Source: Embleya scabrispora (lineage in GTDB: Bacteria; Actinomycetota; Actinomycetes; Streptomycetales; Streptomycetaceae). From it: 64,000 nucleotides of DNA. Below the pieces are notes generated by a model. The model searched no databases. It worked only from the letters and a program-made list of their open reading frames with translations, and was not told the origin of the DNA. A program made the position numbers and the translations under genes. Position 1 is the stretch's first letter; every line of letters starts with the position of its first letter. Below, piece by piece: positions 12,704-41,408 of this stretch. The stretch lies in NCBI RefSeq assembly GCF_002024165.1, contig NZ_MWQN01000002.1, positions 1,054,001-1,118,000 on the forward strand, given 5' to 3'.

Positions 12704-12750
12704 TCGGGTGAGTGGTCCCGGGGGATGTGCGGTGGCACTTTGGGCGGGTG

Positions 12751-15477
12751 ATGTCGAGCTATCAGTTGGCGGTTGCGCAGGTTTTGGCGGAGGCGGACGA
12801 TACCGGGGCTTGGCGGTTGTGGCCCGGGGATCCCTGGTGCATGGTGGCGCCGCCGAAGCACATTCGGCGGCGGCAGGGTTGGAAGTTGCACCTGTCGGCG
12901 ACGGCCCGGTCCGCGCCGCGGGTGTTGGAGAACGCGGCGCGGGTGTTGGTTGCGCACGGGTGTGCGTTCAAGTTCGCCGTGACGCCGAAGGCTGCCGCCG
13001 AGATGAACGCGGTGCGGGCGGTGCGGGCGATGTCCGGCAAGTTCATCACCGCGTATCCAGCCGATGACGAGCAACTGGTCCGGCTCGCCGCCGAGTTGCA
13101 TGCGGTGACCGAGGGGCTGCCGGGGCCGGCCATTCTCTCCGATCGGCGGTATCAGCCGGGCAGCCTGGTCCACTACCGGTTCGGCTGCTTCGCCCATCCC
13201 CGGGAGTTGAACGACGAGGGCTTCTACGAGGGCCGCCTCCAGGCACCCGACGGCACGTTCGTACCGGACCGACGCGAGCCCTGGTTCGCGCCGCCCGCCT
13301 GGGCCGTCGACCCGCTGGCCGAGCCCGCGCCGCCGGCCGGGTCCGCTCCACCCGGCGGCGAGCGCAAGCGCGGTGCCCCCGTCCTGCTCGCGGACCGCTA
13401 CCGGGTCCGGGCGGCGATCAACCACTCCAATCGGGGCGGCGTGTACCGGGCTCGGGACGAGCGCACCGGCGAGGACGTGCTGATCAAGGAGGCCCGCCCG
13501 CACGTGGCTTCCGGGCCGGACGGCCGTGACGCCCGGAACTGGCTTCGGCACGAGGCCGAGGTGCTCGAACGGCTCGCGCCCGGCGGTCCCGGCGGGATCG
13601 TGCCGGCGGTGCGCGAGGTATTCGAGCAGGGTGGGCACGTCTTCCTCGTCGAGGACCTGATCGACGGCGACACGCTCCAGCGGTGGACCACGGACCGGTT
13701 GGAGCGCCGGCACGGCGACGACGGCCGGATCCCGATCCCGGCCGCATGGGAACTGGCCCGCGAACTCGTCCGGTTGGTGGCACAGGTCCACGATGCGGCG
13801 CTGGTGCTACGGGACTTCAAGCCGAGCAACGTGATGATCACGCCGCAGGGGCGGCCCGTGCTCGTGGACTTGGAGGGCGCGGTGCCGCTCGACGGACGGG
13901 CGCCCGTGATCGGTACTCGTGGATTCAGTGCGCCCGAATACCTCGCCGTGAGCGGATCCGCGCCGCCGGCGCCCGGTACTTCGGCCGACTGCTTCAGCCT
14001 GGGCGCGACCCTGCTGCACGCCACGGCCGGGATCAGCCCGGTCCTCGCCGCGGAAGACGCGCCGGCGCGGTCGGCCGGCGAGCGGATCGCGGCGATCGTC
14101 GGCGCCGCGGCCCCCGGGATTCCGGCCCTTGACGCGTTGGCGCCGCTGGTCGTCGGGCTCACCGCCGACATCCCGGAGCGGTGGACGCTCGCGCAGGCCG
14201 CCGACTTCCTGCGGGCGGCGCCGGACCCCGACCCGGCCCGCCGACCCCCGAAGCCGCGGCCCGAGCGGCCTGCCCCGCCGCCCGCCCCGCATCGGCTCCT
14301 CGCGGACGGACTGGCCCACCTCGTCGAGACGATGAACCCGGATGCCGCCTACCTGTGGCCCGCCCCGCGCTCGCTGCCCGACGGCGACCCGTGCAACGTG
14401 CAACTGGGCGCGGCCGGCGTGCTTGCCGTCCTGGACCGGGCCGTCCGGTGCGGCCATCGGGACGCGGAACCGGCGCTGCGCACCGCCGCCGACTGGCTCG
14501 ACCGCCGCTTGGCCCGGCCGGAACGGGTCTTGCCGGGGCTGTACTTCGGGCGCTCGGGGTCGGCCTGGGCGCTGTACGAGGCGGCCCGGACCCTGGCGGA
14601 CGAACCGCTGGCGGCCCGCGCCGCGGCGTACGCCCTGGCCATCCCGCTGACCGGCCGGAACCCGGACGTGTGCCACGGTCTGGCGGGCGCCGGCACCGCC
14701 CAGTTGCACCTGTGGCACGCCACCGGGGACGTCCGGTTCGCCGAGCGGGCCGGGGAGTGCGCGGACGGGGTGTTGCGACTGTTGGCGGCGGCCGACGGCG
14801 GCGTGGACTGGCCGGTGGACGGCGACGTCCGCGCCGAGCTGGCCGGTTCGTCCCTGTACGGCTTCGGCCACGGCGTGGCGGGGAACGCCGCCTTCCTGCT
14901 GTCGGCGGCGCGCGACCTGGATCGGTCCGACCTGCTCGACATCGCGATCGGCGGCGGACACGCGCTGGCCGCGGTCGCGGATCGGCGCGGAGACGTCGCG
15001 CTGTGGCCGAAGGGCCCGGGGCGTACCGAGCGGCCGGGGCTGAACTTCTGGTGCAACGGCACATCCGGCGTGGGGACGTTCCTGGTCCGGTTGTGGCGGG
15101 TCACCCGCGAGGACCGCTGGCTCGACCTGGCCGAGGGTGCCGCGCGCGCGGTGTACGAGGAGCGGTGGCGGATGGGCCCCGGCTCGTGTCACGGCGTGGC
15201 CGGCAACGCCGAACTGCTGCTCGACCTGCACGAGGCCACCGGCGACGACCGCCACCACGCCCGGGCGCGCGAACTCGGCGACTGCATAGCGTTGCGCGCC
15301 GCCCGCAGGCACGGCCGGCTGCTCGTCCCGGACGACACGCTGCGCGACATGTACGCGTCGTACGGCGTCGGGATGGCCGGTGTGCTGGATTTCCTGCTCC
15401 GCCTGACGCACGGCGGACCACGCTCGTGGCTGGTCGACCGGCCGGCCACCGTACCGATTCCCGGAAAGGGGAGATGA
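12751..15477 (+). CDS. lanL: Class IV lanthipeptide synthetase (LanL)
   Basis: A 908-residue three-domain enzyme. Residues 1-200 are the phospho-Ser/Thr lyase-like domain (GWKLHLSATA, GKFITAYP, ILSDRRY). Residues about 215-500 are a Ser/Thr kinase-like domain with catalytic loop RDFKPSN (near 354) and VDLEG in place of DFG. Residues about 510-900 are a LanC-like cyclase that keeps the zinc ligands: Cys in FWCNGTSG (near 767) and Cys-His in SCHGVAGN (near 812). Retained zinc ligands separate it from class III LanKC enzymes. ATG 12751 is preferred over GTG 12712; the ribosome site is weak. The precursor gene follows three bases after the stop. Confidence 0.92.
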   Translation: MSSYQLAVAQVLAEADDTGAWRLWPGDPWCMVAPPKHIRRRQGWKLHLSATARSAPRVLENAARVLVAHGCAFKFAVTPKAAAEMNAVRAVRAMSGKFITAYPADDEQLVRLAAELHAVTEGLPGPAILSDRRYQPGSLVHYRFGCFAHPRELNDEGFYEGRLQAPDGTFVPDRREPWFAPPAWAVDPLAEPAPPAGSAPPGGERKRGAPVLLADRYRVRAAINHSNRGGVYRARDERTGEDVLIKEARPHVASGPDGRDARNWLRHEAEVLERLAPGGPGGIVPAVREVFEQGGHVFLVEDLIDGDTLQRWTTDRLERRHGDDGRIPIPAAWELARELVRLVAQVHDAALVLRDFKPSNVMITPQGRPVLVDLEGAVPLDGRAPVIGTRGFSAPEYLAVSGSAPPAPGTSADCFSLGATLLHATAGISPVLAAEDAPARSAGERIAAIVGAAAPGIPALDALAPLVVGLTADIPERWTLAQAADFLRAAPDPDPARRPPKPRPERPAPPPAPHRLLADGLAHLVETMNPDAAYLWPAPRSLPDGDPCNVQLGAAGVLAVLDRAVRCGHRDAEPALRTAADWLDRRLARPERVLPGLYFGRSGSAWALYEAARTLADEPLAARAAAYALAIPLTGRNPDVCHGLAGAGTAQLHLWHATGDVRFAERAGECADGVLRLLAAADGGVDWPVDGDVRAELAGSSLYGFGHGVAGNAAFLLSAARDLDRSDLLDIAIGGGHALAAVADRRGDVALWPKGPGRTERPGLNFWCNGTSGVGTFLVRLWRVTREDRWLDLAEGAARAVYEERWRMGPGSCHGVAGNAELLLDLHEATGDDRHHARARELGDCIALRAARRHGRLLVPDDTLRDMYASYGVGMAGVLDFLLRLTHGGPRSWLVDRPATVPIPGKGR

Positions 15478-15733: not shown

Positions 15734-17116
15734 TCAGCTCGGGCCGGCGGTTGCGCGGGTCGAGGTGCCGGTGGAGTCGGCATCGGCTTCGGCGTCGGTG
15801 TCGGCGTTGGCGTCCGTGCCGGTCGGCGACGTCGTGGTCGGCCGGTCCCGCACCGAGACCAACACCAGCACGATCGACAGCGCCGAGCCCACGGTCAGTA
15901 CCGGCCACACTCCGTGTCCGAACCGGATGAACAACCACCCGCCCACGACCGGCCCGACCGCCGCGCCCAGGCTCCAGGCGAAGTGGAAGCCGGCGATGTA
16001 GTGGCTCTTGAGCCGCGCCGGCCCGGCCACCACCGGATAGGCCGTGGTCGCCGGACCGCCCAGGATCTCGCCGACGGACCAGATCAGCGTGCCGAGCAGG
16101 ATCACGGCCGGGCCGAGCGGCAGGCCGTACATGCCCACGCCGACGCCCACCAGGACCAGCGCCCAGGCCATGGTCAGCCGCTGCGACCACGCCTGCGCGT
16201 ACTTGGTCATCAACAATTCGAACGCGATGACGATGAAGCCGTTCAGCGACACGGCCAGGGTGTACCAGAAGATCGCCACGCCGCTGTCCTTGACGTCGAG
16301 CGGCAGCGTCGACAGGTACTGCACGTAGACGACCCCGAAGAAGAAGATCGCGGTCAGGTACAGCATGTAGCGGCGGTCACGGATCATGGCCCGATACCCA
16401 CCGCGCCCGACCCGTTCGCCCTCCTCGCCCTCCTCGCCCTCCTCACCCTCCCCGCCGGCCCCGGAGTTCGCCTCGCGGCCCGCCGCGCCCGGCTCGGCGG
16501 AGCGGGGCGGCAGCGTCACCCATGCGAGGGTCGCGTAGCACAGCGCGACCGCCGCCTCGACCCAGAAGACCAGGGCGTAGCTGTGGCCGGCCAGGTTGTA
16601 CAGCGCGAACCCGAACAGCGGCGCGACGGTGACCCCGAGGTTCAGCCCGAACCGGTACATCGCGAAGATCATCACCTGGCGGTTCGCCGGGGTGAGGTCG
16701 GAGAGCAGGGTGGCCGACGCCGGGCGGTACAGCTGCCCGGCCATGCTGACCAGCGCCACCGCGACCAGGATCAGCCCGAACGACGGCAGGTACAGGATGG
16801 CCGCCAGCGGCACGCTCGCGCCGACCATGCTCACCACGCTCGCGTTGCGCGCGCCGAGCCGGATCGACAGTGCGCCGCCGAGGAGCACGCCCACGATCGC
16901 GCCGCCGCCGTACACGCCCAGCGCGAACGCCGCCTGCCCGTCCGAGTAGTCCCGCGAGGTCAGGAACAACACCAGGAAAATGTTCAGGAAGGCCCCGAGG
17001 CGGTTGATGAACGCCCCGGTGAGCAGCGTCTTCGCCGGGAGCGAAGCCTGCCGGAAGGTGGCCACCACGGCCACCTCGTCGTTGTCGTGGCCCTTCTCGC
17101 GGGCGACCTCGACCAC
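15734..17116 (-). CDS. MFS transporter, last gene of the hydrazine operon
   Basis: A 460-residue transporter with about 12 membrane segments and a long Gly/Glu-rich cytoplasmic loop in the middle (GAGGEGEEGEEGEEGE). GTG 17116 lies five bases after the stop of the ATP-grasp gene, with no gene-like sequence upstream in this frame, so translation is probably coupled. Being the terminal gene of a biosynthetic operon, it most likely exports the product. The tail is Thr/Ala/Asp-rich low complexity. Confidence 0.85.
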   Translation of the reverse strand: MVEVAREKGHDNDEVAVVATFRQASLPAKTLLTGAFINRLGAFLNIFLVLFLTSRDYSDGQAAFALGVYGGGAIVGVLLGGALSIRLGARNASVVSMVGASVPLAAILYLPSFGLILVAVALVSMAGQLYRPASATLLSDLTPANRQVMIFAMYRFGLNLGVTVAPLFGFALYNLAGHSYALVFWVEAAVALCYATLAWVTLPPRSAEPGAAGREANSGAGGEGEEGEEGEEGERVGRGGYRAMIRDRRYMLYLTAIFFFGVVYVQYLSTLPLDVKDSGVAIFWYTLAVSLNGFIVIAFELLMTKYAQAWSQRLTMAWALVLVGVGVGMYGLPLGPAVILLGTLIWSVGEILGGPATTAYPVVAGPARLKSHYIAGFHFAWSLGAAVGPVVGGWLFIRFGHGVWPVLTVGSALSIVLVLVSVRDRPTTTSPTGTDANADTDAEADADSTGTSTRATAGPS

Positions 17117-17121
17117 GTCGG

Positions 17122-18456
17122 TCAGCCGACGACGACGCGGATGGCGGCGCGCACACGTTGCTCCAGGGCGTCGAGCCCGTCGGGCGTCGGGGCGTCGATG
17201 AAGAACGTGACGGACCGGTCGTCGGAGTCGGCGAGCGGGGTCAGCGACGCGCCACGCTCGCGCAGCACCAGTACGGCGCGCAGCGTCGGTTCCTCGCCCG
17301 GCGCGCCGGGCTTGATGTCGGGCCACACGCCGCTGGCGCCGATCCATTCCGGCCGCACGTCCGGCCAGTCGAGGACGACATCCTCCAACGTGCCGGGCCG
17401 GTGCTCCAGGTAGACCTGCCGCGTGTAGCGGTGCGGCTGCGGGTAGTTCGCCGGTTCGCCGAGCGCGACGCGCAGGATCTCCGGCTCCAGCGGTCGCCCG
17501 GTGGCCAGTTGATACAGCGTCAGCAGTCCGTCGCCGGGGGTGCGCGCCGCCACCTCGATCAGGCGCGGGCGACCGTCGTCGCCGACCCGCCACTCGGAGT
17601 GCGCGATGCCGTGCTCGAACGCGAGCGCCGCCACCAGTTGCCGATTGGCCGTCACAAGCGCCTCGCGCACGTCCTCGCGCACGCTCGGCACGCTGTGCGC
17701 CATCTCCACGAAGGTGTGCGCGTGGCTGTCGGTGGTGACCTTGTCGGTCACCGACGCGAAGACCACCTCGCCGTCCTGGATCAGGCTCTCCACGGAGAAC
17801 TCCGGGCCCGACACCTTCTCCTCGACGAGGACCACCTCGTGATCGGGGTACGTCGCCAGTTTCGCGCGCAATCCCGCCACGTCCGCCACCGTCTCGACGC
17901 CCGAGCTGGACGCGCGGGAGGCGGGTTTGACCACGGCGGGGAAACGCACCGCGCCGAGGTCGACCCGCTCGCGCTCACCGGCTGGAATGGTCAGCGACGC
18001 CGGGCCCAGGTCCGGGGCGTACCAGCGCTGGAGGTACTTGCTGCGGCAGGCGCGGCTGGCGCGCAGCCCGGGCGAGCGTACGCCGAGCCCGTCGGCGAGC
18101 AGGCCGGTCGGCTCGGCGAGGTAGTCGCCCACCGCGTAGGCGCCGACGATCGTGTACGCCTCGCGCCAGGCCGAGGTGCGCGCGATCGCGCCCGCGACGA
18201 ACGCGCCCTGCACGGTGAAGTCGCCGGTGACGTAGGCGATCTCGGTGATCTGCGCGGCGGGGTTGGAGGTGTCGGCCATGGCCTCCGTCGCTTGCGCGCG
18301 GTAGGACTCCGCGGTGATGACCAGGATCTTGAGCCCACGCCCGGAGAGTTCGGTCAGGTAGAGCGGATTGCGGCGGATCACGGGAAAGGAGCCGGTCAGG
18401 ATGAACGCCTGGGGCCGGTCGGCCGAATCCCGCGACTCGAACGGTGCCTGGGTCAT
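17122..18456 (-). CDS. ATP-grasp carboxylate-amine ligase
   Basis: A 444-residue ATP-grasp enzyme of the biotin-carboxylase-like/L-amino-acid ligase group. The central ATP-binding part is visible: FPAVVKPASRASSSGVE (about residues 170-186), VLVEEKVSGPEFSVE (about 210-224) and the Mg-binding RLIEVAARTPGDG (about 295-307). Such enzymes join a carboxylate to an amine through an acyl-phosphate. Start ATG 18456 follows AGGAGG. In this operon it could form an amide, dipeptide or hydrazide bond on the product or a precursor; the substrates are not predictable. Confidence 0.85.
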   Translation of the reverse strand: MTQAPFESRDSADRPQAFILTGSFPVIRRNPLYLTELSGRGLKILVITAESYRAQATEAMADTSNPAAQITEIAYVTGDFTVQGAFVAGAIARTSAWREAYTIVGAYAVGDYLAEPTGLLADGLGVRSPGLRASRACRSKYLQRWYAPDLGPASLTIPAGERERVDLGAVRFPAVVKPASRASSSGVETVADVAGLRAKLATYPDHEVVLVEEKVSGPEFSVESLIQDGEVVFASVTDKVTTDSHAHTFVEMAHSVPSVREDVREALVTANRQLVAALAFEHGIAHSEWRVGDDGRPRLIEVAARTPGDGLLTLYQLATGRPLEPEILRVALGEPANYPQPHRYTRQVYLEHRPGTLEDVVLDWPDVRPEWIGASGVWPDIKPGAPGEEPTLRAVLVLRERGASLTPLADSDDRSVTFFIDAPTPDGLDALEQRVRAAIRVVVG

Positions 18457-18469
18457 GGTTCCGTGTCCT

Positions 18470-18720
18470 CCTGGATCGGGCGGTTCCGGTGGTCCGGGTG
18501 GTTCCGGTGGATCGGGTGGTTCGGGTACTCGGGGTGGTTCGGGTGCTCCGAATGGTTCGGGTACTCGGAGTACTCCGGGTGCTCCGGGTGCTCCGGGTGG
18601 TTAGGGTGCTCCGGGTGGTTAGGGTGCTCCGGGTGCTCCGGGTGCTCCGGGTGCTCCGGGTGCTCCGGGTGCTCCGGGTGCTCCGGGTGCTCCGGGTGGT
18701 TAGGGTGCTCGGGCGGTCCG
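18470..18720. repeat. 9-bp minisatellite (GGGTGCTCC family)
   Basis: Between the ATP-grasp and LYS9-like genes lies an array of 9-bp units, mostly GGGTGCTCC with variants GGGTGGTTA, GGGTACTCG and GGTGGTTCC, purest at about 18580-18712. It is open in all frames as simple peptide repeats (HPE/HPN in one frame), but has no independent start signal. It probably represents slippage-generated intergenic DNA inside the operon; it may also alter expression of the two distal genes. Confidence 0.85.
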
Positions 18721-18760
18721 GGTCGACTTGCGCCGCTTGGGCCGTGACGACGACCGGTGT

Positions 18761-19921
18761 TCAGCCCGTCCGGTGCCGCTCGGCGAAGCGCCAGTCGACG
18801 CCGTTCGCGCGTAGGAACTCCAGCCACCGGCGGGCATCCTCGGCACCCTGGGCGGCCTGGCGCAGGCCCGCCGGCACCCGCCCGGCGAGGATTTCGGTGA
18901 TCCCGTACGCCAGCGGCAGGGACACACACCGCGCCATCGCGCTCTCCTCGGCGTCGCCGACCGTGTCCAGCACGTATTCGCCGTGCCAGCCCGCGCCGTT
19001 CGTGCCCTCGATGTCGAGCGCGACGGCGAGTACGACCCGGTCCCGGTCGGCGTCGGTGGTCGGATACCGGGCGGCGAGTTCGTCGGCGAGCGCGGCGATG
19101 CGGTCGCCGTCGCCGGTGCGCACGGTGGCGAACACGTCCTCCCACGCCCGCAGCCAGCCGTCCAGGCGAAGCGTGCCCCGGACGAACACGCGCGCCCGCC
19201 AGTCGGCCGGGAACGCGTACTGGGTGAGGTAGGGCAGGCTGTCGCGGTTGGGGTAGGCCTCGAACGTCTCGCCGTCGAGCACGAGCGGACGCGTCGCCGT
19301 CCACGGGAGGTCGACCACCTGCTCGGCGCCGCCGTCGAGGTAGCGGGCCGGCGCGCGCAGCGCGTTCAACACCCCGCGCGGCGCCCAGCTGAACCGGTAG
19401 CGGAACTCGTTGGACTCGGCCGGGACTCCGCCGCAGTACGAGGTGAACTCGACCGTCGCCGGGCCGTCGCCGACGACCTCGCGGCCCCTGGCCACCAGCA
19501 GGTCGGCGAACAGGTGGTCGATGCCCGGGTCCAGGCCCGCCTCGGTCAGCACGACCAGACCGGCCTTCGTCGCGGCCGCCGCCTCGGACACGATCTCATC
19601 GGACACGTAACTGCTGCACGCGAAGTGGGCGCTGCGCTCGATACACAGCCGCAGCAGCGCCGGGTGTTCGCTCGCGGGCAACATCGACACGACGATGTCG
19701 CCGGGACGCAACTCCCCGGCCAGTCGGTCGAGATCGTAGGTGTGCGCGGCGGCGCGACCGGTCAGGCCCAGCCGAGCCAGGCACCGCTCGGCCTTGGCGT
19801 CGGTACGGCCCCAGACCAGCAGCCGCTCGGCCCGGTCGGCCACCACACGCAGTCCGCTGCCGGTGGACAGGCCGGTGCCGATCCAGTGCACGGTTCCGCC
19901 GGCGGGTGTCGCCTCAGACAT
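18761..19921 (-). CDS. Saccharopine dehydrogenase, L-glutamate-forming (LYS9 type)
   Basis: A 386-residue enzyme closely matching the yeast LYS9 pattern: Rossmann start, DIVVSMLP, the CSSYVSDEI segment, EAGLDPGIDH, SYCGGVPA and FSWAPRGVL, YPNRDS and RGTLR in the expected order. LYS9 reversibly joins 2-aminoadipate 6-semialdehyde and glutamate to saccharopine with NADPH. The first ATG is 19921, overlapping the upstream LYS1-like gene by eight bases. In this operon the semialdehyde is the expected by-product of hydrazinoacetate formation, so this enzyme probably captures it. It is unusual in bacteria to see it paired with LYS1 inside a biosynthetic cluster. Confidence 0.92.
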   Translation of the reverse strand: MSEATPAGGTVHWIGTGLSTGSGLRVVADRAERLLVWGRTDAKAERCLARLGLTGRAAAHTYDLDRLAGELRPGDIVVSMLPASEHPALLRLCIERSAHFACSSYVSDEIVSEAAAATKAGLVVLTEAGLDPGIDHLFADLLVARGREVVGDGPATVEFTSYCGGVPAESNEFRYRFSWAPRGVLNALRAPARYLDGGAEQVVDLPWTATRPLVLDGETFEAYPNRDSLPYLTQYAFPADWRARVFVRGTLRLDGWLRAWEDVFATVRTGDGDRIAALADELAARYPTTDADRDRVVLAVALDIEGTNGAGWHGEYVLDTVGDAEESAMARCVSLPLAYGITEILAGRVPAGLRQAAQGAEDARRWLEFLRANGVDWRFAERHRTG

Positions 19922-20999
19922 GGACGTTCTCCGTTTCCAGGCCGTTCGCCTCGCATGCCTCGCGGAAGACCCGCAGGCAGCGCTGCCAGGGTTGCCCCGG
20001 TTCTCCCAGGGTCAGTAGATGGGGTGTCAGTTCGGCGGAGAAGGCGGTACTGGCCTCGCCGGGAAGCAGCGACGGCAGGTTGTCGATGGCGATCACGCCC
20101 AGCGGGTCGCCGACATCGGCCACCATACGGACCGGCTCGCGCCAATCGGTGATGTCGTCGTAGACGGGCAACACATTGTTCCCGGAGGTGACATCGCAGG
20201 TGACGTCCGCGATCAGGGACAGTCGCCGGGGCCGGGACCGGAGCGACGCGAGGGTGACGAACGGCGGGGTCGGCGTGTTCACCAGCACGGCGTTGACGAG
20301 GATGTCGTGATCGAGCAGCGCCGCGTGATCCAGGGACCGGGTCTCGGCGACGTCCCAGCAGGTCGGCTCGATGCCGGCGACCGCCAGCGCGTCGCGCGCG
20401 CCGCGCCCGCACCGGCCCAGCGCCCCGACGACCAGTACGCTCGGCTGCGCGCCGCTCGACGTCTCGCGCAACACCCGGTCGAGGTCCGCCTTCGGGCGTG
20501 GTCGCAACGGCGGATCCAGCCGGCCCCGATGGCGGAGCACCGCGAGCGCCGCGCCCACGTATCCGGCCCAATAGCCGAAGGCGGCCAACCGCCGCCCGTC
20601 CGCGTCGGTGAGGTATTCCAGGTCGAGCAGCGCACCGGCGCCCGCCGTGAAGCGCCGCAGCAGCGCCTCGGCGTCACGCTGGCCCTTGTACGCGTGGCCG
20701 AAGAACACATGCCGATGCCGCAAAGTCGGCGGCTCGTCCGGCAGTTCCTTCAGGCCCACGACGAACTCCGCAGCCGGGGCGGCCCGCCAGCTCCCGGCCT
20801 CGGCGGCCACGCAGCCGGCGTCCAGGTAGTCCCCGATCGGGAACACCCGCTGCGGCGAGTGCTCGACGGTGACCGTGAAGCCGTGCGCGACAAGCCGCGC
20901 GGCGTCGACCGGCACGATCGGCGCGCGCCGCTCGCTCTCGCGCGTCTCGTGCCGCAGCGTGATCCCGATGTCGGTCGTGCGCGGGCGGGGATCGGCCAT
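19914..20999 (-). CDS. Saccharopine dehydrogenase, L-lysine-forming (LYS1 type)
   Basis: A 361-residue protein with an AlaDH/PNT-type N-terminal domain and the LYS1 landmarks: RHETRESERRAP, EHSPQRVFP, the catalytic Lys in VGLKELP and His in FFGHAYKGQ, LLDLEYL and FGYWAGYVGAA, then ADVTCDV and DNLP near the end. LYS1 oxidatively splits saccharopine to lysine and 2-oxoglutarate with NAD. ATG 20999 follows GGAGGA. Together with the LYS9-type gene it forms a complete route from 2-aminoadipate 6-semialdehyde back to lysine. Confidence 0.93.
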   Translation of the reverse strand: MADPRPRTTDIGITLRHETRESERRAPIVPVDAARLVAHGFTVTVEHSPQRVFPIGDYLDAGCVAAEAGSWRAAPAAEFVVGLKELPDEPPTLRHRHVFFGHAYKGQRDAEALLRRFTAGAGALLDLEYLTDADGRRLAAFGYWAGYVGAALAVLRHRGRLDPPLRPRPKADLDRVLRETSSGAQPSVLVVGALGRCGRGARDALAVAGIEPTCWDVAETRSLDHAALLDHDILVNAVLVNTPTPPFVTLASLRSRPRRLSLIADVTCDVTSGNNVLPVYDDITDWREPVRMVADVGDPLGVIAIDNLPSLLPGEASTAFSAELTPHLLTLGEPGQPWQRCLRVFREACEANGLETENVHV

Positions 21000-26081: not shown

Positions 26082-27175
26082 GCGATCACCTCCGCCGACG
26101 TGGACCCGCCGGGCGTCGCGGGCGCGCGCAGCGAGAACGAGTGGGTGCGGTTCAGCGCCGGATCGCCCGGCCGCACGTGCAGTTCGCCGAGGTCCGGCCG
26201 CAACACCACCGCCGCCACGGTGCGTTCCCGGCGGATGTCGCCGTTGCCCTCGACCCGGATCGGCGCCCGCGACAGCAGCGCGAAGTGTGCCTCGACGCCT
26301 GCGTCGGGCGGCAACTCGCCCACCCGGGTCCGGCAGGCGTCCAGCCGCTGCCGGGAGAAGTTGCGGGCGAAGACGTTGAGTTCGTCGGAGGCGAGGAAGT
26401 CCGGGTGCAGGAAGTGGTTGGTGTGCATGCTCGTCGAGGACACGTTCACCCGCTGCTCGTCGTCCAGGATCTCCACCCACGCCGTCTTGCGGGCATCGCA
26501 CAACACCAGGTTGCGCGAACTCGCGAGCTTGAGCGTGCGCAGGATCCGCACCGCCTCGTCCACGTCGGCGGCGCTGTCCAACAGATGACGGATGGCCAGG
26601 TACGGCGGCAGTCCCGGCCGCCATCGGCCGCCGAGCACGAGATTGAGCCCGACCGCCAGGCCGTCGCTGTTGATCCCCAGATAGCCCAGGAGGCCACCGA
26701 AGCCGAGCACCAGGACCCGGCGGGGCGAGCCGGTCCGCGCGATGTCCAGGACACAGATCTGGTCGTCCAGGTCGCCGTTGAGATCGACCGTCTGCGCCAG
26801 CACCGGACCGGCCGCGCCGGCGACGGCGTACGTCGTACAGTCGCCCATGGTCGGGATGCGCTGGTATCCCATCACCTCGCGCCGGATCTGCAGCAGCAGC
26901 GCCTCGTCGGCATCCAGCCCCGCGCCCTCGGCGAGCCCGCGCAACTCCTCGGCCAGCAGCGGCGTCCGGGCCTCGATCTCGACCCGGTACGCGTCCAGCA
27001 CGGGCCGCAGCGTCGCCCACGACACCCGGTTCGTCCCGACCCGGTTGAGCCGGGCCATTCCGTCGTCGAGGAAGGCCCGCAGGCTCTCGGCGCGCTCGGC
27101 GCCGTGCCGCCGCCCGCACGCGAAGGCGTCGCCCCGGGCCCGCACCACCGGCACCGCGAGGGTGTCGGCGGTCAT
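26078..27175 (-). CDS. C45 peptidase/isopenicillin-type acyltransferase homolog
   Basis: A 365-residue Ntn-hydrolase of the acyl-CoA:6-aminopenicillanate acyltransferase family (peptidase C45). Self-cleavage is expected at the Cys of TMGDCTTYAV (about residue 118), making that Cys the N-terminal nucleophile; MHTNHFL and NVFARNFSR match later family positions. Known members exchange acyl groups on amines. Here it may acylate or deacylate the product or a self-protected intermediate. It overlaps its neighbours by four bases on both sides. Confidence 0.83.
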   Translation of the reverse strand: MTADTLAVPVVRARGDAFACGRRHGAERAESLRAFLDDGMARLNRVGTNRVSWATLRPVLDAYRVEIEARTPLLAEELRGLAEGAGLDADEALLLQIRREVMGYQRIPTMGDCTTYAVAGAAGPVLAQTVDLNGDLDDQICVLDIARTGSPRRVLVLGFGGLLGYLGINSDGLAVGLNLVLGGRWRPGLPPYLAIRHLLDSAADVDEAVRILRTLKLASSRNLVLCDARKTAWVEILDDEQRVNVSSTSMHTNHFLHPDFLASDELNVFARNFSRQRLDACRTRVGELPPDAGVEAHFALLSRAPIRVEGNGDIRRERTVAAVVLRPDLGELHVRPGDPALNRTHSFSLRAPATPGGSTSAEVIA

Positions 27176-27786
27176 GCCTGCCCCGTCGGCCTGGTCACCT
27201 TGGGCCCGGCGAGCAACTGCTCGCGCACCGAGGGCCATTCGCCGCGCAGCACGCTGTAGTAGATCGCGTCGCGCCGCCGTCCGCCGGGCATCGGGTTGAA
27301 GCTGCGCAGCACCCCCTCCTCGGTGGCGCCGATGTTGCGCAGTCCCGCGCGCGCCTGGAGGTTGAGCACGTCGGTCTTGAACTCCACCCGTTCGGCGTTC
27401 AGTTGTTCGAACGCGTGCTCCAGCATGAGGAACTTCGCCCAGCGGTTGACGCCCTTGCCCCGGAACTCGGCGCCCAGCCACGACCAGCCGATCTCCAGCC
27501 GCCCGTCCGGTTCGGCGATGCTGCAAAAGCTCATGCTGCCCGCCGTGCGGTCCACCGATTTGTCGATCACGTTGTAGACGACCCGGCGACCGGCGGCCTG
27601 ATCGGCCAGCGCCGCGTCGAAGAACGCGTCGAACTCGGCGTCGGTGGCGATGACCAGCACGAAGTAGCGCCAGATCTCGGGGTCCATCGCCTGTTTGCGG
27701 AACGCCTCGCGGTCCTCGGGGACGATCGGGCGCAGCAGGACGTGCTCGTTCTCCAGTGTCGTCGAAGCGGTCTGCACCCACGTCAT
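27172..27786 (-). CDS. GNAT N-acetyltransferase (RimJ/RimL-like)
   Basis: A 204-residue GNAT protein with the usual order: LLRPIVPEDREAF, EIGWSWLGAEFRGKGVN (acetyl-CoA loop RGKGVN near residue 111) and ARAGLRNIGATEEGVLR. It transfers an acetyl group to an amine. In a hydrazine pathway, N-acetylation for self-protection or tailoring is plausible but unproven. The stop overlaps the next start (ATGA); ATG 27786 lies directly after the ACP stop codon at 27788-27790 with no gap for a separate promoter. Confidence 0.88.
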   Translation of the reverse strand: MTWVQTASTTLENEHVLLRPIVPEDREAFRKQAMDPEIWRYFVLVIATDAEFDAFFDAALADQAAGRRVVYNVIDKSVDRTAGSMSFCSIAEPDGRLEIGWSWLGAEFRGKGVNRWAKFLMLEHAFEQLNAERVEFKTDVLNLQARAGLRNIGATEEGVLRSFNPMPGGRRRDAIYYSVLRGEWPSVREQLLAGPKVTRPTGQA

Positions 27787-27787
27787 C

Positions 27788-28051
27788 TCAAGCCGCCTTT
27801 CCGGCGTGGCGCGACAGCGCCTCGGTCACGTCGCGCAGCGTGCTCATGGCCGCGACGTCGGGTTCGGTGAAACAGGACAGGTCCACCCCGGCATCGTCGC
27901 AGGCGGCCATCAGGAACAAGACCTTGTTCAGCGAAGTCAATCCGTACGTGCCGACCATGTCCTGGTCCGGGTCGATGTCCTGGGGGGCGACGTCGGACTC
28001 CAACACCCGGGCCAGGTTCGTCCTGGCCACGGTCTCAATCTCGGACTGCAT
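27788..28051 (-). CDS. Free-standing acyl/peptidyl carrier protein
   Basis: An 87-residue carrier protein with the phosphopantetheine Ser in YGLTSLNKV (about residue 40) and four-helix spacing. ATG 28051 lies 17 bases inside the end of the upstream acyl-AMP ligase gene, so the two are probably translated together and the ligase is the likely loader. It may pass its acyl group to the KAS III-like transferase or to the NRPS. Confidence 0.85.
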   Translation of the reverse strand: MQSEIETVARTNLARVLESDVAPQDIDPDQDMVGTYGLTSLNKVLFLMAACDDAGVDLSCFTEPDVAAMSTLRDVTEALSRHAGKAA

Positions 28052-29579
28052 GGATGCCTCCCTCGGTGTCGTGGATCCGGGAACGGTAGGCGTCGAGAAT
28101 GCGCCCACGCCTGGGCTTGAGCTGGGAGGTGAGCAGTCCGTTCCCGACACTGAACCGGGGATCGGCCACCACCACCGCGCGGATCTGCTCGTCGGGGCCG
28201 AACGCGGCGTTGGTGTGGGCCAGTTGCTCGGCGACGGCGCGCTCCAGGTCGGGCCCGCTCGCATCCGCCGCCGGGGAGACCACGGCGACCAGCCGGGTCT
28301 GCGTCGGGCAGAACACCACACACTCCTCGATCGCGGGACCGGCCTTCATCCGCTCCTCCAGCGGCCGCACGACGATCTTGCGGCCGTTGTCCAACACGAT
28401 CACGTCGTCGGCGCGCCCGTGCACGTACAGGAATCCGTCCTCGTCCAGCCGGCCGATGTCGTTGGTGCGCACGGTGCCGTCGGGGGCGAACACCCGCTCG
28501 GACACCCCGGGCGGCGCCTGCTCGTAGCCCGTGCACACCGGGTGCTCGGCGCGTACGTGGATCACCCCTTCGGCGTCCAGGATCACCTGTTTCCCCGGCA
28601 GGACACGCCCGACACTGCCCCGCCGATGCGCGCCGGGGTGGTTCTTGGTGACGATGCACGTCTCGTTGAGGCCGTAGCCCTCGAAGATCGGCAGTCCCGC
28701 GTCCTCGAAGAAGGCCAGCGTGCCGGTGGAGGCCGGCGCCGAACCGGTCCACAGATAGCGGATGCGGTCGCCGAACAACCGCCGCGCGCCGTCGCGGCGC
28801 GCCGTCGCCTCGCCCGTGTCCGCGCCGCGCATCCGCGCCTCGATGTGCTTGCGGGCCGTCTCGAAGAACCCCGGCACACCCATCACCACCGTCGGCCGGA
28901 TCGCGCGCAGCGCCGGGAACGCGGCCTCGTAGGTGCAGATCGTGACGTCGTGGCCCCAACGCAGCGCCGAATACGTCCAGTAGCGCTGCTGGAGCACCGA
29001 CAGCGGCAGGAACACGAGCAGGTTGTCCTCGCCGCCGTGCGCGAACATCTCCTGGACCGAGCGCAGATCGTCGTCGATGCTGCCGACGGACGCGGTGAGC
29101 GTCTTGGGTTCGCCCGTGCTGCCCGAGGTGAGCTTCAGCGACAACACGTCGTCGGGCGTATAGACGACCGGTGCCAACACCCGACCGTCGTCCGGTAGGG
29201 CCGCCGCGACCTCGATCTCGGCGAGCGCCCTGCTGCCGGGGGCCTGGGGTGGCCCGTCGGTGAACAGCACGCCCAGCCGGTAGCGTTCGCGCAGCCCGGT
29301 GTCGGTGTCGAACTTGGCCGGGTCGAAGCCCACCGTCACCGCGCCCAGGCGGATCGCCGCGAGATCGAGCAGCACCCAGGCGAGGCCGTTCGGGGCCAGG
29401 ATGCCGATCCGGTCGCCCCGCTCGATGCCCAGGTCGCGCAACCACAGCGCGAGGCGCCCGGCGCGCGTGTGCAGGTCGGTCAGTTCCATCGTCCGGGTCC
29501 CGCCGAGCCGGAAGAAGGAGATGTGCCCGCCGGGGGAGGGGGCTTGGGCGGCGATGTGGTTGATCACCGAATCGCTCAC
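28035..29579 (-). CDS. Stand-alone acyl-AMP ligase (adenylation enzyme)
   Basis: A 514-residue ANL enzyme with LKLTSGSTGEPKTL (P-loop-like A3, about residue 140), YGLNETC (A5), TNDIGRLDEDGFLYVHGRADD (A7/A8) and the catalytic Lys in SQLKPRRG (about residue 485). It resembles long-chain acyl-CoA/AMP ligases more than amino-acid A domains, lacking the conserved Asp235 context. It probably activates a carboxylic acid and loads the small ACP encoded next. The acid could be a fatty acid or hydrazinoacetate; sequence does not decide. GTG 29579 overlaps the NRPS stop. Confidence 0.88.
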   Translation of the reverse strand: MSDSVINHIAAQAPSPGGHISFFRLGGTRTMELTDLHTRAGRLALWLRDLGIERGDRIGILAPNGLAWVLLDLAAIRLGAVTVGFDPAKFDTDTGLRERYRLGVLFTDGPPQAPGSRALAEIEVAAALPDDGRVLAPVVYTPDDVLSLKLTSGSTGEPKTLTASVGSIDDDLRSVQEMFAHGGEDNLLVFLPLSVLQQRYWTYSALRWGHDVTICTYEAAFPALRAIRPTVVMGVPGFFETARKHIEARMRGADTGEATARRDGARRLFGDRIRYLWTGSAPASTGTLAFFEDAGLPIFEGYGLNETCIVTKNHPGAHRRGSVGRVLPGKQVILDAEGVIHVRAEHPVCTGYEQAPPGVSERVFAPDGTVRTNDIGRLDEDGFLYVHGRADDVIVLDNGRKIVVRPLEERMKAGPAIEECVVFCPTQTRLVAVVSPAADASGPDLERAVAEQLAHTNAAFGPDEQIRAVVVADPRFSVGNGLLTSQLKPRRGRILDAYRSRIHDTEGGIHAVRD

Positions 29580-35248: not shown

Positions 35249-36343
35249 TCACGCGTGCGGAGGAATCGAGGACAGGTCCAGCAGATCCGCGGCCTCCGCC
35301 GCGATCGCCGGGGCGAGCCGATATCCGGACCCGTTGGCGGCGCCCGCGAAGACGACGCGTCCGTCGCCCAACGCCCGCACCTGCGGTTCGCCGGTGGGGC
35401 TGTACGCGTCGCAGAACACCCGTCCCGAGACGCGGTGTTCGGCCAGCGCGGGGGCGTGCCGGCGCAGACTCGCGCGCGCCTGGTCGACGTCGTCGGCGGA
35501 CAGGCCGCCGGCCAGGTCGTCGGGATCGACGTCCCAGGTCGTACAGGTGTAGCTGAACAGCCAATGTCCCGAGGCGTGCAGCGGCAGCAGGAACGCGTCC
35601 TCGTCGTGGAAGACGACGGCCCGGTCGGTGCGGGCCGGGACCCGCTCGACATGCAGGGCGACGATCTTCTTGACGCGGGCGCCCAACGGGGCCAGCAGCG
35701 CGCGCCAGGCGGGTTCGGCGAGCCAGGGTCCCGGGGCCAGTACGACCCGATCCGCGGTCACCGTCTCGCCGGTGCCGAGGGTGAGTTCGACCCCGTCCGG
35801 GCCCGGGTCCGCGGAGCCGACGGCGCGCATCGTGTCCACGTGCACACCCTCGCGCAGGGTCACCCGGGGCCGTAGTTCCCGGGCGAGGCCGTGGACCAGC
35901 GCGTAGACGTCGGCGTACTGGGCGCCGCGACAGTCCCAGACCCGCGCGGAATCGGGAAGTCGCAGATCGGTAGGGCCGGTTCGACCATCGGGAGAGTCGA
36001 CGGGGGTCAACTCGGCGCTGTCGAGGTAGATCTCGCGCACGCGCGCGGCGTTCGCGGGGGAGGCGACCACCGACATCGGAACCGCGTGAATCGGCAGCCT
36101 GGGCGCGGAGTCCTTGAGTTCGGCGTAGTACCGCTGGCTGTACGCCGTCATGCGCCGAACCCGCTCCGTCGCGCCGCGCGGACAGTGCAACCCGGCCGAC
36201 CGGCGGCTCGCTCCGGTACCGACGGTGTCCCGGTCCAGCAGCAGGACGGACGCCTGCGGCGCGCGGGCGACGATCTCCCGGGCGACCAGGCAGCCGACGA
36301 TTCCGGCGCCGACGACCGCCACATCGGTGTGTTCCCGGCTCAC
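35249..36343 (-). CDS. FAD-dependent amine oxidase (DAO family) of the hydrazine set
   Basis: A 364-residue flavoenzyme of the DAO/glycine-oxidase family. The FAD-binding VVGAGIVG is at residues 9-16 and the C-terminal FAD/active-site region is DGRVVFAGAANGSGYRLAP. In s56-p1 biosynthesis the equivalent enzyme (Spb39) oxidises N6-(carboxymethylamino)lysine, freeing hydrazinoacetate and 2-aminoadipate 6-semialdehyde. The same step is inferred here from gene context. GTG 36343 overlaps the lysine hydroxylase stop (GTGA). Confidence 0.88.
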   Translation of the reverse strand: MSREHTDVAVVGAGIVGCLVAREIVARAPQASVLLLDRDTVGTGASRRSAGLHCPRGATERVRRMTAYSQRYYAELKDSAPRLPIHAVPMSVVASPANAARVREIYLDSAELTPVDSPDGRTGPTDLRLPDSARVWDCRGAQYADVYALVHGLARELRPRVTLREGVHVDTMRAVGSADPGPDGVELTLGTGETVTADRVVLAPGPWLAEPAWRALLAPLGARVKKIVALHVERVPARTDRAVVFHDEDAFLLPLHASGHWLFSYTCTTWDVDPDDLAGGLSADDVDQARASLRRHAPALAEHRVSGRVFCDAYSPTGEPQVRALGDGRVVFAGAANGSGYRLAPAIAAEAADLLDLSSIPPHA

Positions 36344-39179: not shown

Positions 39180-39330
39180 GAGGCTGAGCCCGCACGTCGG
39201 ATGCCGTGCCCGAGGGTGCGGCATCCGGCGTGTTCCGGCGCATCGGACGCCCGGGTTCCTACCGGCCGGCGGGAGCCCAGCCGGAGTCCGGCCCGAGCCC
39301 AGCCAGCCGGACCCCAGCCCAGCCCAGCCC

Positions 39331-39449
39331 GAGTCCCGCCCGGGCCCGAGTCCCGCCCGGGCCCGAGTCCCGCCCGGGCCCGAGTCCCGCCCGGGCCCGA
39401 GTCCCGCCCGGGCCCGAGTCCCGCCCGGGCCCGAGTCCCGCCCGGGCCC
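39331..39449. repeat. 17-bp tandem repeat x 7 between precursor and enzymes
   Basis: GAGTCCCGCCCGGGCCC is repeated seven times without a change, preceded by an imperfect AGCCCAGCC stretch from about 39288. Each unit holds the palindrome GGGCCC and CCCGGG, so the RNA can fold into many alternative GC-rich hairpins. It lies in the 0.3 kb gap between the precursor stop and the ribosome site of the DUF4135 gene. Confidence 0.9.
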
Positions 39450-39476
39450 CGCCCCGTCACGGAAGGACGATTCGTC

Positions 39477-41408
39477 TTGGCCACCACGATGCCGGTTCCC
39501 GTGCTCGACCGGCTGATCCGGCAGGTACGGGAGGGCGGCGCCCAGGAGGTGTTCCCGCCCGTCGTCACCGACGGACCGGCCGAAACCCTGGCGCCCGACG
39601 GCGCGTTGGGCGGTGTGCGGGACGCCGAACAGGTGGCCGCGCTGCTCGCCGAGGACCGGTTCGCCCCGTTCCGGCGCGCGATGGAGCGACTCGACGCCTG
39701 GAGCGTCCGCGCCGCCGCCGGCATCGACGCCGACCTCCTGGCACCCGGCGTGCTCGACCCGGTCGCCTCCGCACTGTTCGCCCCCACACTGGGCGCGATC
39801 TTCACCGCGTGCCACCACTCCCCGGCGCGGGTGGCCGAGCGCCTGGCGGATCTGCGCGTCACCCAACTCCTCGGCGCACTCGACCTGTTCCTCGTTCGCA
39901 TGGCCACCGACCTGGACGCGGCGCACCGACCCCGGGACCCGCGCCTCGCCGGCCCCGTCGTCGAACTGCGCGCACACGGCGCGGAAACCCACAACGGCGG
40001 ACTGCGGGTGCTACGACTGGCGTTCGCGGGCGGCGGCGCGCTCGCGTACAAACCGCGCCCGGCGAACGGGGAAGCCCTGTTCCTGGCCGACGGCACGACC
40101 GGAGACGACCGGCAACCCGCACAATCGGGCGGCCTGTTCGAGCGGATCAACGCACTGCCGGAAGCCGCCGGACCGGTACGACTGCCGACACTGGCCACCT
40201 GGACCGGCAGCGGTCCCGGCGCGCGCGGCTACAGCTGGCACGAGTGGATCGAACCACCGGCCGAACGGGGCCCCGTCCGTGTCGACGGCTCGACCACGAT
40301 GACCGGCACGGTCCTCACCCCCGAACAGGCGCGCCGCTTCTGGCATCGGGTCGGCAACCTCGCGGCGACCTGTACCGCGTTCGGCGTCTCCGACCTGATC
40401 GGCGGCAACGTCCTGGCCGGGGCGCGCCCGCATCGGGCGCACGACGAGCCCATGCTGTACCCGGTGGACCTGGAGTGCTACTTCACCGGATCGACCGGAC
40501 TGCGCGCCACCGGCCTCCTGGGTCCGGCCCCGTCCCCCACCGAGGAGGCCGCCGACGACGACTTCGAATACCCGCCCGGCCTGGAGGACACCGCCGACTG
40601 GCGGGCCCTCGAGGGCGGCGCGCTGGTCTGGCGACGCGCGGCCGACGGGACGCTCCGACTGCTGCCCATGGACCGCCCGCCGACCCGCACGGTGGTTCCC
40701 TCCGCCGTCGCGGACACCGAGGGCGGATTCGGCCGCGCACCCCACCTCCTGTCGATGCTGCGCGGCATGTTCGACGCCTGGACGCTGCTGTGCCGGCACC
40801 GCGAGGCGGTGCGGCGCGAAGTGGAACCGCGAGCGCGCGAGGCGTACATCCGCATCGTGCCGCGCCCGACCGCCGACTACGCGCGGGCCATCGACGCCCG
40901 ACTGCGCGGCACCACCGCGGAACGCCATCCGGACGGCGAACCCTTCAGCGTCGACGAGAAGGCGCAGCTGAGCCGCTGGGACGTGCCCTACTACTTCTGC
41001 GCGGCGGTCCCGCCCGAGGGCGACCCGGCCGGCCCCGGCGCACCGCTCCTCGCCCTGGCCCCGGCGCCGGAACCCTTCCTGGCCAAGCCCGTTCCGTTCG
41101 CGGAGAGCCCCGAGGCGGAGGTTCCCGAATTCCCCTCGGCCGGACTGCACCGCTACGCCGACCCCACCCTGGCCGCGCTCGGCCCGGCCCTGCGCGACGC
41201 GGTGGTCGGAGTGATCGAGCAACTGCCGGACTCCCGAACCCTGGTGGACCCCGCACTGGGCGTGGCGCTGCGCTGGTCCGAGGGCGGCACCGACGGCCGG
41301 GTCGACTTCGACTGGCCGAGGGCGGGCCGGCGGATCGGCTACGAATGGGCCGGCGGCACACTGCGCATCCACCTGGCGAAGCTCGACACCCCGGGGGAGG
41401 CGTCGTGA
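39477..41408 (+). CDS. Cyclase-less LanM-like protein (DUF4135 dehydratase homolog)
   Basis: A 643-residue protein matching the N-terminal dehydratase part of LanM (DUF4135): GGGALAYKPRP (ATP-binding Lys), GNLAATCTAFGVSDLIGGNVLA, YPVDLECYF, and IRIVPRPTADY (phosphate-elimination Arg/Thr region). The LanM motif D-x-H-x-E-N reads D-L-I-G-G-N, so Asp and Asn are kept but His and Glu are lost. The LanC cyclase domain is absent. It may phosphorylate or dehydrate the precursor without ring closure, or act differently. TTG 39477 is chosen because GGAAGGA lies nine bases upstream; ATG 39489 is an alternative. Confidence 0.85.
   Translation: MATTMPVPVLDRLIRQVREGGAQEVFPPVVTDGPAETLAPDGALGGVRDAEQVAALLAEDRFAPFRRAMERLDAWSVRAAAGIDADLLAPGVLDPVASALFAPTLGAIFTACHHSPARVAERLADLRVTQLLGALDLFLVRMATDLDAAHRPRDPRLAGPVVELRAHGAETHNGGLRVLRLAFAGGGALAYKPRPANGEALFLADGTTGDDRQPAQSGGLFERINALPEAAGPVRLPTLATWTGSGPGARGYSWHEWIEPPAERGPVRVDGSTTMTGTVLTPEQARRFWHRVGNLAATCTAFGVSDLIGGNVLAGARPHRAHDEPMLYPVDLECYFTGSTGLRATGLLGPAPSPTEEAADDDFEYPPGLEDTADWRALEGGALVWRRAADGTLRLLPMDRPPTRTVVPSAVADTEGGFGRAPHLLSMLRGMFDAWTLLCRHREAVRREVEPRAREAYIRIVPRPTADYARAIDARLRGTTAERHPDGEPFSVDEKAQLSRWDVPYYFCAAVPPEGDPAGPGAPLLALAPAPEPFLAKPVPFAESPEAEVPEFPSAGLHRYADPTLAALGPALRDAVVGVIEQLPDSRTLVDPALGVALRWSEGGTDGRVDFDWPRAGRRIGYEWAGGTLRIHLAKLDTPGEAS

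What the first reader, a model, noticed from the sequence alone, without database searches (positions are those of the whole stretch)
18761..20999. LYS1 and LYS9 pair as a lysine-recycling loop for hydrazine synthesis
Hydrazinoacetate formation by the Spb-type route discards 2-aminoadipate 6-semialdehyde. The operon encodes both enzymes needed to turn it back to lysine: LYS9 type (semialdehyde + glutamate to saccharopine) and LYS1 type (saccharopine to lysine + 2-oxoglutarate). Their catalytic motifs are intact and very close to the fungal patterns. Lysine would then act only as a carrier and the net amino donor would be glutamate. I do not know of a described cluster with this cycle.
Basis: inference. 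Interest (0 to 1): 0.87.

Follow-up and report, generated by a model that had tools for sequence, protein, structure and literature searches.

The report
Lysine-regenerating enzyme pair in azaserine-type cluster
Two adjacent genes in an Embleya antibiotic-type gene cluster encode the two enzymes that can turn the spent by-product of hydrazine synthesis back into lysine; the same pair is already reported in the azaserine and triacsin clusters, so what is new here is support for the recycling role rather than the genes themselves.

Summary
The two genes exist where stated and are intact: a LYS1-type enzyme (19914-20999, -) and a LYS9-type enzyme (18761-19921, -). They lie inside a 16-gene, co-oriented operon that matches the published azaserine (azs) cluster gene for gene, except that azsF and azsG are missing. 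The pair is therefore AzsH/AzsI, the homologues of Tri23/Tri24 of triacsin. The claim that no described cluster carries them is wrong. Published authors suggested lysine supply, and report that disrupting tri23/tri24 did not affect triacsin. I found no open paper that spells out recycling of 2-aminoadipate 6-semialdehyde (AASA).

My tests favour recycling: saccharopine-specific residues are conserved; cofactor signatures match the fungal lysine-making direction (LYS9 NADP-type, LYS1 NAD-type); the host genome has no other recognisable AASA source; the pair sits beside 12 of 20 hydrazinoacetate-type cupin-MetRS genes and 0 of 17 distant ones; and the only LYS9 relative found outside the family, in a class-wide sample, is also in such a cluster.

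The pair is facultative, so it is probably an efficiency or clean-up module. Direct biochemistry is missing.

The parts
18761..19921 (-). LYS9-type saccharopine reductase/dehydrogenase (AzsI/Tri24 homologue), 386 aa
   Evidence: Pfam PF03435 + PF16653; phmmer to 1e5l/1e5q saccharopine reductase E=4e-39; signature residues kept; NADP-type 'GRT'
19914..20999 (-). LYS1-type saccharopine dehydrogenase (AzsH/Tri23 homologue), 361 aa; only copy in the genome
   Evidence: phmmer to yeast Lys1 (2qrj, 3ugk) E=7e-69; active-site residues kept; NAD-type 'WD'; single match in own genome
36340..37692 (-). Lysine N6-hydroxylase (AzsL/Tri26/Spb38 type)
   Evidence: PF13434 E=2e-93
35249..36343 (-). FAD oxidase (AzsM/Tri27/Spb39 type), expected to release AASA + hydrazinoacetate
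   Evidence: PF01266; gene order as in azs; reaction from literature on Spb39 (PMC13274452)
32926..35229 (-). Cupin / MetRS-like / carrier protein (AzsN type), N-N bond former
   Evidence: PF07883 + PF09334 + PF00550
29576..32929 (-). NRPS, condensation/cyclisation-A-carrier (AzsO type)
   Evidence: translation and synteny; the domain order Cy-A-CP is the published one for AzsO, not scanned here
28035..29579 (-). AMP-binding ligase (AzsP type)
   Evidence: PF00501
27788..28036 (-). Carrier protein (AzsQ type)
   Evidence: position and synteny; 99% to E. hyalina
27172..27786 (-). N-acyltransferase (AzsS type)
   Evidence: PF13302
26078..27175 (-). AAT/C45-type peptidase (AzsT type)
   Evidence: PF03417
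25287..26081 (-). Thioesterase (AzsB type)
   Evidence: PF00975
24353..25240 (-). Isocitrate-lyase/PEP-mutase-like (AzsC type)
   Evidence: PF13714
23439..24356 (-). 3-oxoacyl-ACP synthase III-like (AzsD type)
   Evidence: PF08545
21056..23395 (-). Haem-oxygenase-like diiron enzyme (AzsE type)
   Evidence: PF14518 E=6e-16
17122..18456 (-). ATP-grasp ligase (AzsJ type), follows the pair
   Evidence: PF13535; synteny
15734..17116 (-). MFS transporter (AzsK type)
   Evidence: PF07690; synteny

Best explanation
This is an azaserine-type hydrazinoacetate cluster that carries its own lysine-recovery pair. Lysine is N6-hydroxylated (AzsL type), joined to glycine (AzsN type) and cleaved by the FAD oxidase (AzsM type) to hydrazinoacetate and AASA; these steps are known for the homologues. 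The LYS9-type enzyme then reductively joins AASA with glutamate (NADPH) to give saccharopine, and the LYS1-type enzyme oxidises saccharopine (NAD+) to lysine + 2-oxoglutarate; these steps are inferred here from family, residues and context. Net effect: lysine acts as a carrier, glutamate supplies the second nitrogen of the hydrazine, and a reactive aldehyde that could trap the hydrazine as a hydrazone is removed (the trapping role is inference). The module raises efficiency and is not essential.
For: Yeast Lys1 residues recalled as catalytic or binding (R18, K77, E78, H96, E122, R131, D319) are kept in 17/17 cluster and 43/43 standalone copies, D319 in 42/43. The 21 saccharopine-reductase signature positions checked are all kept by the window protein. 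NADP-type 'RT' in 16/16 cluster LYS9 copies and NAD-type 'WD' in 17/17 cluster LYS1 copies: the fungal lysine-making split. Pair within about 13 kb of 12/20 HAA-type cupin-MetRS loci versus 0/17 distant cupin-MetRS loci; Fisher p=7e-5, chance expectation 0.01. The only LYS9 relative outside the family in a class-wide sample (384 genomes) lies in a HAA cluster. No homocitrate synthase, alpha-aminoadipate reductase or lysine 6-aminotransferase above cut-off in the genome, so the pathway itself is the evident AASA source. Same operon, overlapping reading frames. dN/dS 0.16-0.36 against other Embleya.
Against: Disruption of tri23/tri24 is reported not to affect triacsin production (PMC10445470). 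7 of 20 HAA-type loci lack the pair and one has LYS9 only. One cluster LYS9 (G203) is split into two frames. The pair is also common in Streptomyces outside such clusters. No enzyme assay exists. Residues cannot fix the direction, because both reactions are reversible.
Confidence: 0.62

Rival explanations
1. Net lysine supply: the pair makes extra lysine from saccharopine, as the azs authors suggested.
For: Published suggestion (PMC10445470); LYS1 family chemistry forms lysine.
Against: No alpha-aminoadipate-pathway enzyme or lysine 6-aminotransferase above cut-off in the genome to feed AASA/saccharopine, so without the hydrazine pathway there is nothing to convert; supply then collapses into recycling.
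Confidence: 0.12
2. Facultative passenger: a catabolic lysine/saccharopine pair picked up by the cluster, with little or no role in the product.
For: tri23/tri24 disruption without effect (PMC10445470); absent in 7/20 loci; homologous pairs occur outside clusters, sometimes beside an ornithine-cyclodeaminase-like and a FAD oxidase gene; cluster copies do not form one clade.
Against: Co-location 12/20 against 0.01 expected, same strand and close spacing in each fetched locus, purifying selection, the outside-family relative also in a HAA cluster.
Confidence: 0.15
3. The LYS9-type enzyme cleaves the hydrazine adduct itself (PyrL-like), not AASA/saccharopine.
For: PyrL, a saccharopine-dehydrogenase-like protein, was suggested to cleave the glutamate adduct in pyrazomycin synthesis (PMC8664883); the adduct resembles saccharopine.
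Against: The FAD oxidase for that step is present in the same operon. A PyrL-like neighbour of a distant cupin-MetRS (L137:6286-7503) has lost Y100, E122, D126, D130, H131, W174, N223, R243, G244, while the window protein keeps all 21 positions checked. It would not explain LYS1.
Confidence: 0.06
4. Reverse (catabolic) direction: the pair drains lysine to AASA.
For: Both reactions are reversible; related pairs outside clusters may serve lysine/pipecolate turnover.
Against: Would compete with the cluster for its own precursor; cofactor signatures match the lysine-forming fungal enzymes.
Confidence: 0.05

Closest known systems
Azaserine (azs/aza) cluster of Streptomyces fragilis: AzsH/AzsI
   Same: Same gene set (B-E, H-Q, S, T types) and the same two saccharopine-dehydrogenase genes next to ATP-grasp and MFS genes (PMC10445470).
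   Different: Window lacks azsF (acyl-CoA dehydrogenase) and azsG (P450); gene order differs, with the pair at the downstream end.
Triacsin (tri) cluster: Tri23/Tri24
   Same: Homologues of AzsH/AzsI, 57% and 68% identical to them (PMC10445470).
   Different: Polyketide triazene pathway, not an NRPS; disruption reported without effect. tri sequences not compared directly here.
Fungal alpha-aminoadipate pathway Lys9 + Lys1
   Same: Same two-step chemistry, conserved residues and the NADP/NAD split.
   Different: In fungi AASA comes from aminoadipate for net synthesis; here it would come from the hydrazine pathway. The bacterial LYS9 is shorter (386 versus 450 aa).
Pyrazomycin PyrL
   Same: Saccharopine-dehydrogenase-like gene beside a cupin-MetRS system (PMC8664883).
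   Different: The PyrL-like neighbour examined (L137) is only distantly related and lacks many reductase residues.

Membership tests
LYS1 (saccharopine dehydrogenase, lysine-forming) | Active-site residues R18, K77, E78, H96, E122, R131, D319 (yeast numbering, set recalled from the yeast enzyme literature) | tested here: met
   H320 is Asn in all bacterial copies and K13 is Arg in nearly all
LYS1 (saccharopine dehydrogenase, lysine-forming) | NAD-binding Asp after the Rossmann beta-2 strand | tested here: met
   'WD' in the window and 17/17 cluster copies
LYS1 (saccharopine dehydrogenase, lysine-forming) | Activity with saccharopine + NAD+ | not testable with these tools
   Needs an enzyme assay
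LYS9 (saccharopine reductase) | Saccharopine-reductase core motifs (S-Y, GLDPG-DH, CGG, FSW, YPNRDS, RGTLR) | tested here: met
LYS9 (saccharopine reductase) | Activity with AASA + glutamate + NADPH | not testable with these tools
   Needs an enzyme assay
Carboxyspermidine dehydrogenase | Sequence similarity to the carboxyspermidine dehydrogenase structures 4rl6/4ina | tested here: not met
   No match at E<=0.001 to 4rl6/4ina in the PDB sequence search; matches are saccharopine reductases and one lysine-6-dehydrogenase
Azaserine-type (azs) cluster | HAA genes plus carrier, ligase, acyltransferase, Cy-type NRPS, KASIII, TE, HDO | tested here: met
Azaserine-type (azs) cluster | azsF acyl-CoA dehydrogenase (hydrazine to hydrazone) | tested here: not met
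   Absent from the window; best genome match 36% identity elsewhere
Azaserine-type (azs) cluster | azsG P450 | tested here: not met
   No tblastn match in the window; rest of genome not searched

The most novel reading that the evidence does not exclude
Hydrazine-forming clusters in actinomycetes run lysine as a true catalytic carrier: a built-in saccharopine shuttle regenerates lysine, so glutamate is the net donor of the distal hydrazine nitrogen and the aldehyde that would trap the product is removed.
Probability: 0.5. Interest if true: 0.6.

Novelty: new member of a known kind. Interest (0 to 1): 0.42.

Why it matters
If true, it explains why two primary-metabolism-like genes recur in azaserine, triacsin and related clusters, changes the nitrogen accounting of hydrazine biosynthesis (glutamate instead of lysine as net donor), and gives a simple module for raising titres of diazo and hydrazine products in engineered hosts. 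It also turns an annotation usually passed over as lysine supply into a testable claim.

Tried and rejected
LYS9 as carboxyspermidine dehydrogenase: no match to those structures. LYS9 as PyrL-like adduct cleaver: signature residues argue against. Recent decay of the pair: dN/dS 0.16-0.36 and identity like the core genes. Single origin of cluster pairs: the LYS1 tree needs 4 and the LYS9 tree 3 label changes, so neither one recruitment nor several is shown. The triacsin cluster paper and the Angewandte azaserine paper are not held, so a recycling proposal there cannot be excluded. The promoter/terminator scan gave nothing above chance.

Full report
Observation. Both genes are present at the stated place. 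The LYS1-type gene runs from 19914 to 20999 and the LYS9-type gene from 18761 to 19921, both on the minus strand, overlapping by 8 bases. The LYS1-type protein matches yeast Lys1 structures (E=7e-69). The LYS9-type protein carries both saccharopine dehydrogenase Pfam domains and matches fungal saccharopine reductase (E=4e-39).

Setting. The pair lies in a 16-gene, same-strand run (37692 down to 15734) in which the genes overlap or lie within 60 bases of each other, except one 304-base gap after LYS9. The run corresponds to azsL-M-N-O-P-Q-S-T-B-C-D-E-H-I-J-K of the published azaserine cluster (PMC10445470). The genome is an Embleya: the cupin-MetRS is 97% identical to that of E. hyalina. It has one LYS1 gene.

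Prior knowledge. PMC10445470 lists AzsH and AzsI as saccharopine dehydrogenases, 57% and 68% identical to Tri23 and Tri24. It says they probably supply lysine, and that disruption of tri23 and tri24 did not influence triacsin production. Full-text searches found only two open papers that mention saccharopine together with N-N bonds, and in the passages read neither proposes recycling of AASA. The triacsin cluster paper and one azaserine paper are not held. So the pair is known; the explicit cycle was not found but may have been proposed.

Enzyme identity. Against yeast Lys1, the residues I recalled from the enzyme literature as catalytic or binding are conserved in 17 cluster and 43 standalone bacterial copies. 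Exceptions are D319 (Glu in one standalone copy), H320 (Asn in all bacterial copies) and K13 (Arg in nearly all). Against M. grisea reductase, yeast Lys9 and human AASS, the SY, GLDPG-DH, CGG, FSW, YPNRDS and RGTLR motifs are kept in nearly every bacterial copy. LYS9 copies carry the NADP-type Arg (16/16 cluster) and LYS1 copies the NAD-type Asp (17/17 cluster). That is the fungal arrangement for making lysine. A PyrL-like protein next to a distant cupin-MetRS has lost 9 of the 21 positions checked, while the window protein keeps all 21.

Association. In 394 genomes of the family, 20 cupin-MetRS loci are of the hydrazinoacetate type (55% identity or more to the window). Twelve have LYS1 and LYS9 within about 13 kb, one has LYS9 only, seven have neither. 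Of 17 more distant loci with a cupin domain, none has the pair nearby. Fisher p=7e-5; the random expectation is 0.01 loci. Related genomes are not independent, so the p-value is optimistic. In 384 genomes across the class, the only LYS9 relative outside the family sits in a hydrazinoacetate cluster with LYS1. Many Streptomyces carry the pair elsewhere, often in one conserved neighbourhood, sometimes next to an ornithine-cyclodeaminase-like and a FAD oxidase gene. The cluster copies do not form a single clade.

Source of AASA. The genome has no homocitrate synthase, alpha-aminoadipate reductase or lysine 6-aminotransferase above the curated cut-offs. The only evident source of AASA is the cluster's own FAD-oxidase step, known for Spb39 (PMC13274452). 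This makes net lysine supply unlikely and recycling likely.

Conclusion. The recycling loop is the best explanation (confidence 0.62), with a probable second benefit: AASA is an aldehyde that could capture the hydrazine product (inference). It is facultative, and no catalytic turnover has been shown. The finding is a supported interpretation of already catalogued genes in a new cluster member, not a new system.

Noticed in passing
window 15734-37692: The cluster lacks azsF (acyl-CoA dehydrogenase, hydrazine-to-hydrazone step) and azsG (P450), which lie between the HDO and LYS1 genes in other azs clusters. The same lack is seen in E. hyalina, E. scabrispora, S. sporangiiformans and, on its fragment, Amycolatopsis rhizosphaerae, so this subtype may make a different product or use the HDO for that step.
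   Followed up: partly
L125:13476-14660 (G353:C3): A hydrazinoacetate-type cluster with a LYS9 gene but no LYS1 gene nearby.
   Followed up: no
L137:6286-7503: PyrL-like saccharopine-dehydrogenase-family gene next to a lysine hydroxylase and a distant cupin-MetRS, with many reductase signature residues changed.
   Followed up: partly
L145:9933-13110 and L148:9931-13234: LYS1/LYS9 beside a FAD (DAO) oxidase and an ornithine-cyclodeaminase-like gene, suggesting a lysine/pipecolate pathway outside hydrazine clusters.
   Followed up: partly
G203:C4:2713158-2714286 (L127:5158-6286): LYS9 in a hydrazinoacetate cluster is split into two frames: sequencing error or decay.
   Followed up: no
window 18457-18760: 304-base gap between LYS9 and the ATP-grasp gene, the only long gap in the operon.
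   Followed up: no
window 12712-15477 and 39201-41408: A RamC/LanC-like kinase-cyclase gene and a DUF4135 (lanthionine synthetase-like) gene flank the cluster.
   Followed up: no
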